Shown here piece after piece: positions 3,704 through 7,390 of a DNA stretch of 64,000 nucleotides; the stretch's first letter is position 1; the number at the start of each line of letters is the position of its first letter. The notes under the pieces were generated by a model. That model saw nothing but the letters and a program-made list of their open reading frames with translations. It searched no databases and was not told the DNA's origin. A program made the position numbers and the translations under genes. Source of the DNA: Mesorhizobium comanense (GTDB lineage: Bacteria > Pseudomonadota > Alphaproteobacteria > Rhizobiales > Rhizobiaceae); the NCBI RefSeq assembly GCF_005503535.1, contig NZ_SCNN01000001.1, positions 372,001 through 436,000 of the forward strand, in the 5' to 3' direction.

Positions 3704-3880
3704 CCATATCCTCCCCAGGAGCGATTTGCCGTCTTTGCAAACAGCCTATGCTGTTTCTTCCGGCGCTGTCTTCCCTGATTTTCGTCTATGCCGGCCTCGC
3801 TAGACCTGACATGCGTGGTGTCGTGCAGTGCGGTGCATAAGGAAGGGGAGGGCCTGCGCAATCAGGAGGCGGTCACGGCA

Positions 3881-4192
3881 ATGCCGGCGCTGGCGCTGGC
3901 AACTGGAGTGGCGCTGGCTGTATCGACCGCAGCCGCTTGCGCCGGCGATGCCGCCGCGCGCCGCATTGTCGGTGTTTTGCCCGATGGTGCCTATTTCGCC
4001 TTCGAACAATATGGCGAACTCGACGCCGGCGCCTCGGTGCCCGGCTATTCGCAGAGCGACATCATCGACACGCGCGCGGATGAGTTTGTCGGCGGCAAAC
4101 CGATCCTGATCGTCCAACCGGCCGTCATTGTCATACTGGCGCAGCGTTTCAGCCAAGGCTTCGAAGCCTCGACAGTCGCTTCATCGCCGTGA
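3881..4192 (+). pseudogene. Truncated DUF2259-like secreted protein
   Basis: The ATG follows an AGGAGG at 3864-3869, and the first 25 codons give a signal-peptide-like stretch ending AAACAGDA. The next 50 residues (GVLPDGAYFAFEQYGELDAG...DIIDTRADEFVGGKPI) resemble the N-terminus of predicted secreted proteins of the DUF2259 family (VLGFSxDGxxFAFEEYG...IDTxxDxFxxGTPI). Those proteins run to about 240 residues. Here the match stops after GGKPI and a further 25 unrelated residues lead to a stop, so most of the domain is missing. I read it as a decayed gene. The family assignment is from memory of the motif pattern. Confidence 0.5.
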
Positions 4193-4262: not shown

Positions 4263-4379
4263 CTAGATAGGCAGAGCCACAAGCATGAGGCCGACACCAC
4301 CGAAGATCAAAATGGCCGCCGCAAGTGCTTTTCGATGACGCTCGAAAGTCGTCGGCGCCCGCTCCCAGTTGTAACGCAT
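4263..4379 (-). CDS. 38-residue predicted membrane miniprotein
   Basis: On the minus strand an ATG at 4379 opens a 38-codon frame ending in TAG at 4265-4263, preceded by a strong Shine-Dalgarno sequence (GGGGAG, 7 bases before the ATG). The peptide has a basic, aromatic N-terminus (MRYNWERAPTTFERHRK) followed by one hydrophobic helix (about residues 18-38: ALAAAILIFGGVGLMLVALPI), the layout of a small single-span inner-membrane protein with the N-terminus inside. No family is recognised. It lies between the DUF2259 relic and the PqqD cluster, on the opposite strand from both. Confidence 0.6.
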   Translation of the reverse strand: MRYNWERAPTTFERHRKALAAAILIFGGVGLMLVALPI

Positions 4380-4653: not shown

Positions 4654-4938
4654 ATGGAAATTGCCTCCGGGACTGTTTTGCGGCTGGCCGACGACGCCTC
4701 GGTCCAGCATGTCGGCGATGGCGCGGTCGTGCTTCTGGCGCGCAGCGGCCAGCTTTACACATGCAACGGCACGACCGAAGCCTTTCTGGACAAGGTGGAT
4801 GGCGAACGCAGTCTCGACCAGATCGTCGGCCTGCTTTGCGCCGAGTTCGAGGTCGACAAGGACACGCTCGACGAGGACATGGCGGCGCTGGCCGCCGACC
4901 TCGTTTCGGAAGGCATCCTCGCCGCTCCGGGGGCCTGA
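4654..4938 (+). CDS. PqqD-like peptide chaperone / RiPP recognition element
   Basis: This 94-residue protein has the PqqD winged-helix pattern: a strand-rich first half (VLRLADDASVQHVGDGAVVLL..GQLYTCNGTTEAFLDKVDG) and a helical second half (SLDQIVGLLCAEFEVDKDTLDEDMAALAADLVSEGIL). PqqD-type domains hold leader peptides for RiPP enzymes. The ATG at 4654 is preferred over GTG 4651 and TTG 4630 because GGGG sits 7 bases ahead of it. It is the first gene of a tightly packed run with the B2 protease gene (12-bp gap), the HprK-like gene and a nucleotidyltransferase, a set known from lasso-peptide-like and HPr-kinase-related clusters. No leader-bearing precursor was recognised nearby. Confidence 0.82.
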   Translation: MEIASGTVLRLADDASVQHVGDGAVVLLARSGQLYTCNGTTEAFLDKVDGERSLDQIVGLLCAEFEVDKDTLDEDMAALAADLVSEGILAAPGA

Positions 4939-4950
4939 GGTGGGCGCCTG

Positions 4951-5385
4951 ATGGCCGATAGCCCGTTCCTGCGCGCCTTGTTTCGCTGCCATCTCTGGGC
5001 AAGCGCGCGGCTGCTGCCGATTCTTGTTGCGAACCGCAGCTTCGAGGATGTCCTGAAATGGGCGCCGCTTGCGTCGTCCACGCCTTATCGCGGCCTGCCC
5101 GCCGCCTACATCGTCGCGCGCGTCAACCGTGCCGTGCGCCGCCCCTGGCTGATGCGCGACCGCAGATGCCTGCGCGAAGGCCTGCTCGGCCACCGTTTCC
5201 TGCGCTTTGCCGGGTTCGATCCGGAACTGCGCTTCGGCGTCGATCCGAAGTCGCTGCAGTCGCCGCGCCTGTCGGCGCATTGCTGGGTCTGCCTCGATGG
5301 CAAGCCCGTGGTCAGCGACAGCCTTCCCGGCATGGTCGAGATCTATCGCCACTCCGCGAGCTCCACAAAGGTGCGCCCCGCTTGA
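4951..5385 (+). CDS. Lasso-peptide B2-type transglutaminase-like protease
   Basis: This 144-residue protein matches the B2/transglutaminase-core family that removes leader peptides from lasso precursors. The catalytic triad can be placed: Cys73 in RRCLREGLLGHRFL, His110 in LSAHCWVCLDG and Asp116 in the same segment. The ATG at 4951 follows GAGGTGGG. Its stop codon overlaps the TTG start of the next gene (TTGA), so the two are probably translationally coupled. With PqqD (B1-like) upstream this forms a B1-B2 pair, but the asparagine-synthetase-like cyclase of true lasso clusters is absent from the window. Confidence 0.83.
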   Translation: MADSPFLRALFRCHLWASARLLPILVANRSFEDVLKWAPLASSTPYRGLPAAYIVARVNRAVRRPWLMRDRRCLREGLLGHRFLRFAGFDPELRFGVDPKSLQSPRLSAHCWVCLDGKPVVSDSLPGMVEIYRHSASSTKVRPA

Positions 5386-6380
5386 CCAGACCTTCCGCGT
5401 GCTATGACCTCAACGGCCAGCTCTTCGGCATTTCGGCGGAACGCCCGGATCTGTGGCAGGATTTGGACAGGATGCTTGCCAGCTTGCGCATCGACGGTTC
5501 GGCCGCGCCGGATTTTCATCTCGAAATAGACGAGGTGGAGATCTTGGACGAGTCGCCGCAGGGATCGCTGATCTTCGATGGTGAGATCCCGGAGGACGGC
5601 TACTGCCGGATGATCGCGGACGGCCCCAGCGTGCACCTCGTCTTTCCGGGGCGCCAGACGGTGGAGATCAACGGGACGGGTTGGGCCAGGCTCCGGATCG
5701 TGCCGGACAGCGAGGCTGCCTGGACGCCGTCCATGCTGGTGCTGGACGCAGCGCTCGACGCCGGCGGCCAGCATATGCTGCACACGGCAGGCCTGACGCC
5801 GCCGGGCCACGATGAGGTCGTGCTCATCCACGCGCCGAGCGGCACCGGCAAGACCACCACGTCGCTGGCCCTGGCAACGCAAGGTTTCGGCCTGTGCTCC
5901 GACGATGCGATGATCCTGGACGTCACGTCTGTCCCGCCTGTTGCCTGGGGCCTGCCACGCCACGTCAAGATCCACCAGAAGACCGCCGGGATGATCCCCG
6001 AGGTGGCGCCGTGCCTTGGCCCTTCCTGGGACCGCAATGGCGAACAGGCCGTCTCGTTGGAAAAGCTGGGTGGCATCGTCCGGATCGAAACCCCGACGGC
6101 CCGCCCGGTGGCGGCACTCCTGCACCTTGCACGTTCCGCCGATGCTGGGACCCGGCTCCTGCCCATGGCGCGCACCGATGCAATGGTGGCGCTGGCGATG
6201 GACAATGTCCGCACCGGCGCGACCGGGCTGCTGCCCCTGCAGAAGCGCCGGCTGGCAACGATCGGGAAGCTGGTCTCAGCCGTGCCGACCTTCACACTGG
6301 AAGTAGGGGCGCGGCCGGCCGATGCCGCCGAACTGATCCGGGCCGCCCTGGCAGCGAGAGGCTCCGCTCAGGCGACGTAA
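5382..6380 (+). CDS. HPr kinase-like P-loop protein of a RiPP-type cluster
   Basis: From the TTG that overlaps the B2 stop codon the protein is 332 residues. About 145 N-terminal residues are unassigned. They are followed by an HprK-like C-terminal kinase fold: Walker A at residues 151-161 (APSGTGKTTTS) and an acidic pair in LCSDDAMIL (D174, D175). Proteins of this type occur with PqqD and B2 proteins, and some phosphorylate the lasso peptide C-terminus (paeninodin-type kinases). HPr as substrate is unlikely on context alone, although an HPr gene does lie 4 kb away in the dihydroxyacetone operon. The non-ATG start is the main uncertainty, since no in-frame ATG or GTG was found near the B2 stop. 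The gene converges with, and overlaps by 13 bp, the nucleotidyltransferase. Confidence 0.75.
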   Translation: MTRPSACYDLNGQLFGISAERPDLWQDLDRMLASLRIDGSAAPDFHLEIDEVEILDESPQGSLIFDGEIPEDGYCRMIADGPSVHLVFPGRQTVEINGTGWARLRIVPDSEAAWTPSMLVLDAALDAGGQHMLHTAGLTPPGHDEVVLIHAPSGTGKTTTSLALATQGFGLCSDDAMILDVTSVPPVAWGLPRHVKIHQKTAGMIPEVAPCLGPSWDRNGEQAVSLEKLGGIVRIETPTARPVAALLHLARSADAGTRLLPMARTDAMVALAMDNVRTGATGLLPLQKRRLATIGKLVSAVPTFTLEVGARPADAAELIRAALAARGSAQAT

Positions 6381-7390
6381 GGCCTCGCCTTTGCCAGCCG
6401 CTGGATCCAGCGGAACGCGTCGCGGCGCAGGCGCGAGCCGATCTTCTCCCTCGAATTGACCCTGAGCAGCGTATTCGTCGTGATCAGCTGCCTGGCCAGC
6501 CGTATCGACAAATCGGGCTTGATGCGCCCGGCGAGTTCGAGCGCGTGCGGCTCATCGAACAACCGGCCGGTGACGTTGAGCACGATCGCCAGTTCCAGTT
6601 CGATGCCGGTCATGCGCGCGGCGTCGAGCAGGCGCGTTTCGGATTCCGGCGAATGCAACGCCCGCACGCCTTGCAGCACGTCCACGCACAGCTGCAGCCG
6701 GTGGAACTTGTGTCCGCCGGCGGCATGCACGATGGCGATCGTCAACAGGGCGGCCGGCGTGTCCGCCGCATCGCCGTCGATGATGGCGAGTTCGCGGAAG
6801 CCCAGCGACAGGCGCCGCCGCATGCCGGTGTCATGCACTAGGTCTCCATGCAGTTCGACCAGCAGGCTGGAATTTTCCTTCTCCAGCCATTTGAATTCCT
6901 GCAACTGGTAGGATTCGGCTTCATTGCTGCCCAGCTCGAAGCCGTTTGCCGCGATCACCTTGTTTGCCCGTGCGAGGTCCGCGGGATCGACGAGGATGTC
7001 GATGTCGGTGAACGGCCTGTCGGAGACATTGCGATAGAGCTTTCGCGCGAAGACCGGTCCCTTGACGATTCGGGCCGGAATGTTCTGCGCCGCCATCCCC
7101 TTCATGATGCGGTCGCCGTGGTATTGCAGCAGCATCGACTGGCCGGTGGCGATCGTGGCCTTCTGGCGCAGATCCTCCAGCCTGGCCTCAAGGCCGGCAT
7201 CCCTGGGCAGATGCGCATCGCCGCGCTCCCGGAGCTTGCGCAGCATGATCGGCAGGATGCCGTGGAACTCGGCATTGTCGAGCAGCGCCGACAGTGACTT
7301 TGCCGACGAGATGTCCTCGACCGCGCGAGCCCCGGGGTCGGCGTAGCGCAGCAGCAGTTTTTCTTCGGCGGTGGTGAGAGACGGCAGCAT
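6368..7390 (-). CDS. Nucleotidyltransferase family protein of the PqqD/B2/HprK cluster
   Basis: This 340-residue protein carries the signature of the uncharacterised nucleotidyltransferase family often found in lasso-like clusters: IVKGPVFARKLYRN (residues 108-121) followed by RPFTDIDILVDP, with the metal-binding pair D129/D131. The second half is helical with conserved His residues (HAAGGHKFHRL). Its target is unknown; it may add a nucleotide to a peptide or protein. The last codons overlap the HprK-like gene on the other strand, so the two converge rather than form one transcript. Upstream on its own strand, 69 bp away, is the end of dhaK, which could feed read-through into it. Confidence 0.8.
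   Translation of the reverse strand: MLPSLTTAEEKLLLRYADPGARAVEDISSAKSLSALLDNAEFHGILPIMLRKLRERGDAHLPRDAGLEARLEDLRQKATIATGQSMLLQYHGDRIMKGMAAQNIPARIVKGPVFARKLYRNVSDRPFTDIDILVDPADLARANKVIAANGFELGSNEAESYQLQEFKWLEKENSSLLVELHGDLVHDTGMRRRLSLGFRELAIIDGDAADTPAALLTIAIVHAAGGHKFHRLQLCVDVLQGVRALHSPESETRLLDAARMTGIELELAIVLNVTGRLFDEPHALELAGRIKPDLSIRLARQLITTNTLLRVNSREKIGSRLRRDAFRWIQRLAKARPYVA

What the first reader, a model, noticed from the sequence alone, without database searches (positions are those of the whole stretch)
4654..7390. PqqD-B2-HprK-nucleotidyltransferase cluster without a recognisable precursor or cyclase
The sequence shows a PqqD-like protein, a B2 leader protease with a placeable Cys73-His110-Asp116 triad, an HprK-like kinase with Walker A and a nucleotidyltransferase with a TDID motif, packed in 2.7 kb. 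These families make a known set in lasso-like clusters, but the asparagine-synthetase-type cyclase is missing and no precursor with a leader was recognised within 0.5 kb. The system may cleave and phosphorylate or nucleotidylate an unknown peptide made elsewhere, perhaps a surface or regulatory peptide since polysaccharide genes are close.
Basis: partly seen in the sequence, partly recalled or inferred. Interest (0 to 1): 0.78.

Follow-up and report, generated by a model that had tools for sequence, protein, structure and literature searches.

The report
One enzyme set, many scattered peptides
Four linked genes in Mesorhizobium look like a shared processing line for a large family of tiny peptides encoded all over the genome, each with a conserved serine or threonine that is probably phosphorylated and decorated; this appears to be a lasso-like peptide system that never makes a lasso.

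Summary
The four genes are real, intact and where stated: PqqD, B2 protease, HprK/PEPCK-fold kinase, PF14907 nucleotidyltransferase. No cyclase or precursor lies in the window. A complete lasso cluster with its own set of these enzymes lies about 22 kb away, but five relatives keep the quartet without a second B2.

The missing substrate was found: tiny peptides (26-48 aa) with a lasso-type leader (Y-17, P-14, L-12, A-1) and a core of mostly 5-20 residues, beside the quartet in many relatives and scattered over the genome in others. The window's genome has 15. In 146 genus genomes, 97 of 97 with the quartet's B2 have 3-28 hits; of 49 without it, 45 have none and 4 have 1-2. In 397 genomes of the order, 16 of 17 with the quartet and 0 of 380 without it have hits. 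All 155 cores found with a leader-only model have Ser or Thr (147 Ser). None of 120 parsed cores could close a lasso ring.

Best reading: PqqD binds the leaders in trans, the kinase phosphorylates the core Ser/Thr, the nucleotidyltransferase caps the phosphate, B2 frees a short linear peptide. System and substrates are well supported; the chemistry is inferred; the role is unknown.

The parts
4654..4938 (+). PqqD-family leader-binding protein (RiPP recognition element), 94 aa from ATG 4654; a longer start at TTG 4630 is possible
   Evidence: PF05402 6.5e-12; no premature stop in 61 of 61, 45 of 102 positions invariant
4951..5385 (+). B2 leader peptidase, 144 aa, Cys73/His110/Asp116
   Evidence: NF033537 68.1 bits over cut-off 33; PF13471 3e-13; Cys73 61 of 61, His110 61 of 61, Asp116 60 of 61
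5382..6380 (+). HprK/PEPCK-fold kinase, 332 aa, Walker A SGTGKTT; TTG start overlaps the B2 stop
   Evidence: AF2 model pLDDT 93.7; VIA-align Z 15.8, rmsd 5.4, 284 residues to PEPCK 1j3b; Lys157, Asp174, Asp175 invariant in 22 sequences of several families
6368..7390 (-). PF14907 nucleotidyltransferase, 340 aa, convergent with the kinase gene
   Evidence: PF14907 1.1e-27; AF2 pLDDT 91.7; VIA-align Z 12.3 (rmsd 3.2, 172 residues) to MenT1 and 9.9 to ANT(2'')-Ia, though Foldseek alone gave nothing at E <= 0.001; Asp129 and Asp131 invariant in 20 sequences

Best explanation
The four genes are a trans-acting maturation set for a family of very short ribosomal peptides (a cyclase-less relative of phosphorylated lasso systems). 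Each precursor has a lasso-type leader with Tyr(-17), Pro(-14), a hydrophobic residue at -12 and Ala(-1), and a core of mostly 5-20 residues with a Ser (rarely Thr) usually 3-6 residues in. PqqD binds the leader and presents the core; the HprK-like kinase phosphorylates the core Ser/Thr; the nucleotidyltransferase adds a nucleotidyl or sugar group to that phosphate; B2 cuts after the -1 Ala and frees a linear, capped phosphopeptide. In some lineages a formyltransferase, or an AMP-ligase with a GNAT acyltransferase, adds a further acyl group. One enzyme set serves 3-28 precursor genes spread over the genome, many with recognisable start signals of their own. Shown here: gene set, synteny, precursors, co-occurrence, leader register, conserved Ser/Thr, kinase and nucleotidyltransferase folds. 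Inferred: order of steps, the modified residue, the group added, the accessory steps and the role.
For: Quartet's B2 in 97 of 146 genus genomes; all four genes syntenic in 60 of 60 of these loci read; a clean 3-kb presence/absence unit. In L048 B2 and kinase are one 471-aa reading frame. All four genes in 11 of 12 loci from other families, no cyclase match in up to 20 kb, with nucleotidyltransferase place and strand varying; in the named-genome scan 53 of 56 loci have all four and 0 of 56 a cyclase match. Precursors: 15 in the own genome. Genus: 97 of 97 B2-bearing genomes have 3-28 hits (877 in all), 4 of 49 others have 1-2; without the 13 genomes that gave peptides to the search profile, 84 of 84. 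Order: 16 of 17 quartet genomes, 0 of 380 others; 10 of 11 without the 6 donors. Hits track the quartet, not B2 or lasso clusters: 12 of 16 genus genomes and 9 of 9 order genomes (one, G071, in both counts) with a clear B2 but no quartet have none, and 5 of 5 with the quartet but no second B2 have 6-16. Leader-only model: Ser or Thr in 155 of 155 cores against a shuffle mean of 138 and maximum of 150. Register: Y-17 in 117, P-14 in 116, A-1 in 117 of 120. TTGACA upstream in 47 of 110 against 6 of 110 on the reverse strand; GGGG first met at -12 to -9 in 52 of 110. Biochemical precedent: BsfK phosphorylates core Ser3 and BsfB1 aids both steps (PMC10368454, passages including abstract).
Against: No product, phosphorylation or cleavage has been seen. 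The co-occurrence rests on few independent changes: at least 4 on an acs tree of 75 genomes, with only 2 independent pairs on supported branches, so a sign test cannot reach significance. The search profile includes peptides taken from beside quartets, so adjacent positives are partly by construction, and the genome searches score only candidates of a loose first look. Four quartet-less genomes keep 1-2 hits, one of them strong (G134, 3.2e-12). One quartet genome of the order (G221) is missed by the profile, though divergent peptides lie beside its quartet. The leader dN/dS comparison is saturated and not informative. No shared neighbour or exporter of the scattered precursors was recognised. 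In the window and its close relatives no precursor lies beside the quartet. One nucleotidyltransferase fold match rests on VIA-align alone.
Confidence: 0.8

Rival explanations
1. The quartet is a second or spare maturation set for the complete lasso cluster about 22 kb away and acts on that lasso precursor.
For: 92 of 97 quartet-B2 genomes have a second B2; in 20 of 20 sampled genomes this second locus holds all seven lasso-cluster genes with a conserved precursor, 24-33 kb from the quartet's B2 in 19 of 20 and 12 kb in one (coordinates).
Against: The lasso cluster has its own PqqD, B2, kinase and nucleotidyltransferase, only 24-28% identical to the quartet's. Five genomes have the quartet's B2 without a second B2; for three of them the expected place was read and holds no lasso gene. 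In other families the quartet occurs without a cyclase match nearby.
Confidence: 0.07
2. The short peptides are leader-bearing relics or decoys of lasso precursors without a product; the quartet modifies another, unknown substrate.
For: Some precursors beside the quartet look degenerate, for example in L071, L073 and L074; four quartet-less genomes keep one or two.
Against: 3-28 hits in every one of 97 quartet-B2 genomes, Ser/Thr in all 155 cores, a fixed leader register, and promoter and ribosome-binding signals. Relics should not depend on the quartet nor keep a core residue.
Confidence: 0.08
3. The peptides do not act as free products: the quartet modifies protein tails in place, or B2 is a trimming step for leader-bearing larger proteins.
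For: In L154 the same leader is fused to a Peptidase_S74 domain in a 131-aa protein.
Against: That fusion is one case; Peptidase_S74 gave no match in the own genome, and 153 of 155 peptides found with the leader-only model end within 20 residues of the leader, the other two 24 and 38 residues after it.
Confidence: 0.05

Closest known systems
Bsf phosphorylated lasso system of Bradymonas sediminis (PMC10368454; passages read, including from the abstract)
   Same: Split PqqD-type B1 and B2, kinase and predicted nucleotidyltransferase; leader YxxPxL at -17 to -12; Ile/Val at -2 there, often Val or Thr here; phosphorylated Ser near the start of the core.
   Different: Bsf has a cyclase and an ABC transporter, one clustered precursor and a ring-forming core. 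Here there is no cyclase, most cores are too short, and precursors are many and scattered.
Paeninodin and pseudomycoidin clusters (PMC8498205; passages read)
   Same: HPr-kinase homologue acting on a Ser of the precursor; a nucleotidyltransferase working after the kinase (reported to put hexoses on the phosphate in pseudomycoidin).
   Different: There the C-terminal Ser of a true lasso precursor is modified and a cyclase is present. Here the Ser/Thr lies inside a short linear core.
Prochlorosins/ProcM (PMC10783134; passages read)
   Same: One enzyme set with many precursor genes scattered over the genome.
   Different: Lanthipeptide chemistry by a LanM-type enzyme, not a PqqD/B2/kinase/nucleotidyltransferase set.
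HPr-rel-A system (TIGR04352; its partner genes are recalled, not looked up)
   Same: HprK-related kinase, with a PqqD-like protein and a nucleotidyltransferase as recalled.
   Different: The kinase scores 27.7 bits against a cut-off of 200.

Membership tests
Lasso peptide biosynthesis | Leader peptidase B2 and PqqD-type leader-binding protein | tested here: met
   NF033537 68.1 bits, cut-off 33; PF05402 46 bits, cut-off 23.4
Lasso peptide biosynthesis | Asparagine-synthetase-like cyclase in the cluster | tested here: not met
   The own genome's lasso cyclase gives no match in the window or 60 genus loci, 12 other-family loci or 56 named loci; the cyclase 22 kb away belongs to a separate complete cluster
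Lasso peptide biosynthesis | Core able to form a 7-9 residue ring with a threaded tail | tested here: not met
   0 of 120 parsed cores (rule: G/A/S/C first, D/E at 7-9, at least 4 residues after it); 100 of 120 are 11 residues or shorter
Lasso peptide biosynthesis | Leader with YxxPxL at -17 to -12 | tested here: met
   Y-17 in 117, P-14 in 116, hydrophobic -12 in 116 of 120; residue identity was partly required by the parser, the exact spacing was not
Phosphorylated lasso systems (Bsf, paeninodin type) | HprK-like kinase of the HprK/PEPCK fold with Walker A | tested here: met
   PEPCK fold Z 15.8 over 284 residues; Walker A Lys157 invariant in 61 genus and in 22 mixed sequences. Kinase activity not tested
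Phosphorylated lasso systems (Bsf, paeninodin type) | Ser in the core as phosphate acceptor | tested here: met
   Ser in 147 and Ser/Thr in 155 of 155 cores found with a leader-only model; presence only, phosphorylation not tested
Phosphorylated lasso systems (Bsf, paeninodin type) | Lasso cyclase and ring-forming core | tested here: not met
   As for lasso biosynthesis above
RiPP (ribosomal, post-translationally modified peptide) | Modified, leaderless product | not testable with these tools
   Needs mass spectrometry
RiPP (ribosomal, post-translationally modified peptide) | Precursor with conserved leader and variable core, linked to modifying enzymes | tested here: met
   linkage by adjacency in many loci and by phyletic co-occurrence
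HPr-rel-A system | Kinase over the TIGR04352 cut-off | tested here: not met
   27.7 bits against 200; L157 and L163 kinases 23.5 and 25.5

The most novel reading that the evidence does not exclude
A separate RiPP class of short linear peptides bearing a capped phosphate (nucleotidyl- or glycosyl-phospho-Ser/Thr): one chromosomal enzyme set matures a genome-wide repertoire of up to 28 tiny peptides, including a subset with the Ser held between two Cys (C-x-P-S-x-C type), acting as a family of phosphate-tagged signals or cargo-bearing peptides, with lineage-specific N-acylation.
Probability: 0.5. Interest if true: 0.92.

Novelty: new variant of a known kind. Interest (0 to 1): 0.82.

Why it matters
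It gives a substrate family to a gene set that looked orphaned and accounts for hundreds of tiny ORFs in Mesorhizobium (877 hits in 97 genomes); of four plasmid records matched by one such peptide, the best place was annotated 'putative RiPP precursor' and the best places of the other three not at all in that gene table. It shows that the lasso leader/PqqD/B2/kinase/nucleotidyltransferase toolkit occurs as a module without the cyclase, with precursors in trans. It makes a testable case for kinases and nucleotidyltransferases as the main tailoring steps of a RiPP, and the short linear substrates should be easy to synthesise and assay. The biological role in root-nodule and other alphaproteobacteria is open.

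Tried and rejected
The 38-aa ORF at 4263-4379 (-), conserved beside the quartet, was tested as precursor and rejected: it is in 121 of 146 genomes, 27 of them among the 49 without the quartet's B2. Peptidase_S74 was sought in the own genome after a leader-S74 fusion was seen in L154: no match. Leader dN/dS was computed on 2613 pairs, but synonymous sites are near saturation. Paired-change tests on an acs tree have too few independent pairs. Neighbours of scattered precursors were read by eye in 18 loci; apart from what look like orthologous neighbourhoods none recurred clearly. NCBIfam and Pfam do not place the peptides tested over any cut-off; the nearest was lasso_leader_L3, 18.9 bits against 19, for one peptide. 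The classical HPr kinase was not among the fold matches listed, which PEPCK fills; this excludes nothing. In one search the cyclase query was read in a wrong frame, so that call did not test the cyclase; one search repeats the test with the right frame for the window and the same 60 loci. The peptide model was built from 41 peptides that include two later judged spurious (L158, L159; dropped before the counts of 120); 8 of 207 model hits were not parsed. In the leader-only set of 155 the two long cores are L073, a degenerate reading, and L266. Paper searches for a description of the quartet or its scattered precursors found lasso reviews and the Bsf paper but no such system in the listings; only open-licence PMC papers are held.
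Full report
OBSERVATION. The kinase is weak by sequence (Hpr_kinase_C 0.0098, TIGR04352 27.7 bits under a cut-off of 200). Its AlphaFold2 model (pLDDT 93.7) matches phosphoenolpyruvate carboxykinases, which share a fold superfamily with HPr kinase (recalled), over its whole length (Z 15.8, rmsd 5.4, 284 residues). The nucleotidyltransferase model (pLDDT 91.7) had no Foldseek match at E <= 0.001; VIA-align placed MenT1 (Z 12.3, rmsd 3.2, 172 residues) and ANT(2'')-Ia (Z 9.9) first, both nucleotidyltransferases.

SURROUNDINGS. The window is G000:C11:372001-436000. A complete lasso cluster lies on the same contig at 347309-354774, with ABC transporter, kinase, cyclase, B2, PqqD, a 50-aa precursor (MEQNVEKHEYETPSLTVHGSIETITQ / GGGGSTAIDASFPAHTPIGDLTFS) and nucleotidyltransferase. 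Between it and the quartet are polysaccharide-type genes (by eye), an acyltransferase and acs. The two enzyme sets are only 24-28% identical over their aligned parts. All seven genes of the lasso cluster were found in 20 of 20 second-B2 loci sampled from quartet genomes, the cyclase broken in L111.

A CONSERVED UNIT. The window B2 has a close homologue in 97 of 146 genus genomes. I read 60 of these 97 loci, chosen for spread and flanking length. In 60 of 60 the order is acs, PqqD, B2, kinase, nucleotidyltransferase, mostly followed by dhaK; no premature stop was seen in 61 sets including the window, and none of the 61 has a cyclase match. In L048 B2 and kinase are one open frame of 471 aa. Fourteen quartet-less loci, picked through the 38-aa ORF, show the same place without the quartet, 13 of them with dhaK directly behind that ORF.

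OTHER FAMILIES. A kinase profile over 397 genomes of the order (141 genera) matched 18, 12 of them outside the genus. Of these 12 loci, 11 have all four genes (in L157 the nucleotidyltransferase is cut by the contig end); none has a cyclase match in the 11-20 kb read. The nucleotidyltransferase varies in place and strand but stays linked, and among ORF groups shared by three or more loci only the four quartet families and one antisense frame are in all 11. In a named-genome scan 53 of 56 loci have all four genes and 0 of 56 a cyclase match; hosts include Ancylobacter, Prosthecomicrobium, Kaistia, Phreatobacter, Chelativorans, Aquibium, Rhodobacteraceae and Rhodospirillaceae MAGs, and single loci labelled Pirellulales and Verrucomicrobia. 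At least one peptide hit (E <= 0.05) lies in 27 of these 56 loci, some of them weak or spurious. Some of these loci are from the same genomes as.

THE PRECURSORS. A leader pattern search found short ORFs beside the quartet in many relatives: in Mesorhizobium between nucleotidyltransferase and dhaK or between the 38-aa ORF and PqqD, and in tandem elsewhere (six in L157, three in L155 and L156, several in L163). None is in the window or in L035-L054, its close relatives. A profile of 23 such peptides (A2) gave 15 hits at E <= 0.01 in the own genome, on contigs C5, C7, C8, C15, C33 and C75, none on the quartet's contig C11. Read in L175-L182 they include MKKRYEKPTLDRRQKLSSVTA/ACTPSTCVNL, MKKTYVRPRLVKRERLSDVAA/VTCTISHPCP, MKKTYIKPSLSKREKLSAVVA/CPPSRCAS and MTRKTYEKPTLLRREKLSAVVA/AVTVSGTSSA (/ marks the proposed cut).

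CO-OCCURRENCE. Genus: 101 of 146 genomes have hits. All 97 with the quartet's B2 have 3-28 (median 8, 877 in all); of the other 49, 45 have none and G018, G019, G118 and G134 have 2, 1, 1 and 1. Leaving out the 13 genomes whose peptides are in the profile gives 84 of 84. Order: hits at E <= 0.001 in 16 of 397 genomes, all among the 17 quartet genomes (five of the six genus members were read for all four genes, G113 only for B2 and kinase); the one missed, G221, has divergent peptides beside its quartet. Leaving out six donor genomes, 10 of 11 quartet genomes have hits against 0 of 380. In other families, too, hits lie far from the quartet or on other contigs (G188, G303, G384, G508, G520, G531). 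Hits follow the quartet rather than lasso genes: 12 of 16 genus genomes with B2 but no quartet have none, as have 9 of 9 order genomes with a clear B2 but no quartet, one of which (G071) is also among the 16; five genomes with the quartet's B2 but no second B2 have 6-16 (in G015, G049 and G126 the lasso site was read and lacks the cluster; G122 is only 79% complete). On an acs tree of 75 genomes (14 quartet-less) the quartet needs at least four changes; one quartet-less clade (G018, G019, G071, G118) is nested among quartet genomes and keeps 2, 1, 0 and 1 hits, as expected of a recent loss, but the independent pairs are too few for a test.

ANATOMY OF THE PEPTIDES. Of 207 model hits in the 223 sources then held, 199 were parsed into 122 distinct peptides, two of which I judge spurious. 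The 120 are 26-48 aa long, median 31. Tyr(-17) is in 117, Pro(-14) in 116, a hydrophobic residue at -12 in 116, Ala(-1) in 117; -2 is Thr in 61, Val in 35, Ala in 22; none could form a lasso ring. To avoid bias from core columns, a model of the 21 leader residues alone was run on 308 sources: 155 distinct peptides, Ser in 147, Ser or Thr in 155; the eight without Ser come from L260, L265 and L269. Dealing out the same core letters at random 2000 times gave means of 119 and 138 and maxima of 134 and 150. Ser/Thr lies at core positions 3-6 in 152 of 155. In 27 of 120 cores the Ser lies between two Cys. In 110 non-redundant upstream stretches TTGACA occurs in 47 (6 on the reverse strand), in 43 of the 47 at 51-75 bases before the start, and the first GGGG of the last 40 bases lies 9-12 bases before it in 52.

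ACCESSORY GENES. A formyltransferase (PF00551, 1.9e-20 in L094) matches in 20 of 142 loci compared: 9 of the 60 genus loci, 0 of the 14 quartet-less and 11 others; an AMP-ligase (44% identical or more) with a GNAT acyltransferase lies in 8 loci (L153, L163, L255, L260, L263, L264, L266, L268; L163 and L268 are the same genome). This points to optional acylation, by inference.

MECHANISM. The Bsf system gives the closest biochemistry: BsfK phosphorylates Ser3 of the core, BsfB1 speeds this and helps BsfB2 to cut, with YxxPxL at -17 to -12 and Ile at -2 (PMC10368454; passages including the abstract). The nucleotidyltransferase of pseudomycoidin is reported to put one or two hexoses on the phosphate (PMC8498205; passages). 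I therefore propose leader binding, phosphorylation of the core Ser/Thr, capping of the phosphate, and cleavage after Ala(-1). Enzyme identity, leader register and the conserved hydroxyl residue are shown; order, acceptor, donor and function are inferred. Many scattered precursors served by one enzyme set resemble prochlorosins (PMC10783134; passages).

NOVELTY. NCBI annotation names one of these peptides 'putative RiPP precursor' (WP_258589678.1, Mesorhizobium sp. AR02), so the peptides are not wholly unnoticed. No NCBIfam or Pfam model places those tested over its cut-off, though one misses lasso_leader_L3 by 0.1 bit. Ten paper searches listed no description of the quartet or its link to scattered precursors in the open-licence library. 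By the membership test it is not a lasso system (no cyclase, no ring-competent core), though it works like one in leader handling. I file it as a new variant of a known kind.

Noticed in passing
L003 5309-12774 (G000:C11:347309-354774), outside the window: Complete lasso cluster with kinase, nucleotidyltransferase and a highly conserved precursor whose core ends in Ser; all seven genes found in 20 of 20 sampled quartet genomes.
   Followed up: partly
window 4263-4379 (-): 38-aa ORF MRYNWERAPTTFERHRKALAAAILIFGGVGLMLVALPI, conserved in 121 of 146 genus genomes with or without the quartet; by its sequence probably a small membrane protein.
   Followed up: yes
L154 6860-7252 (-): The same leader fused to a Peptidase_S74 chaperone domain in a 131-aa protein beside the quartet.
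   Followed up: partly
L048 6411-7826: B2 and kinase form one 471-aa reading frame in this relative, a fusion or a lost stop.
   Followed up: partly
L043, between kinase and nucleotidyltransferase: Two ORFs that look like glycosyltransferases are inserted in the quartet of G035 (by eye, no family search).
   Followed up: no
L111 (G077): The cyclase gene of the lasso cluster gives broken and inverted matches in one genome.
   Followed up: no
window 3788-4192 (+): ORF beside acs matched only in pieces in many relatives and not at all in others; no Pfam match.
   Followed up: partly
G018, G019, G118, G134: Quartet-less genomes that keep one or two precursor hits, perhaps relics of a lost system.
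   Followed up: partly
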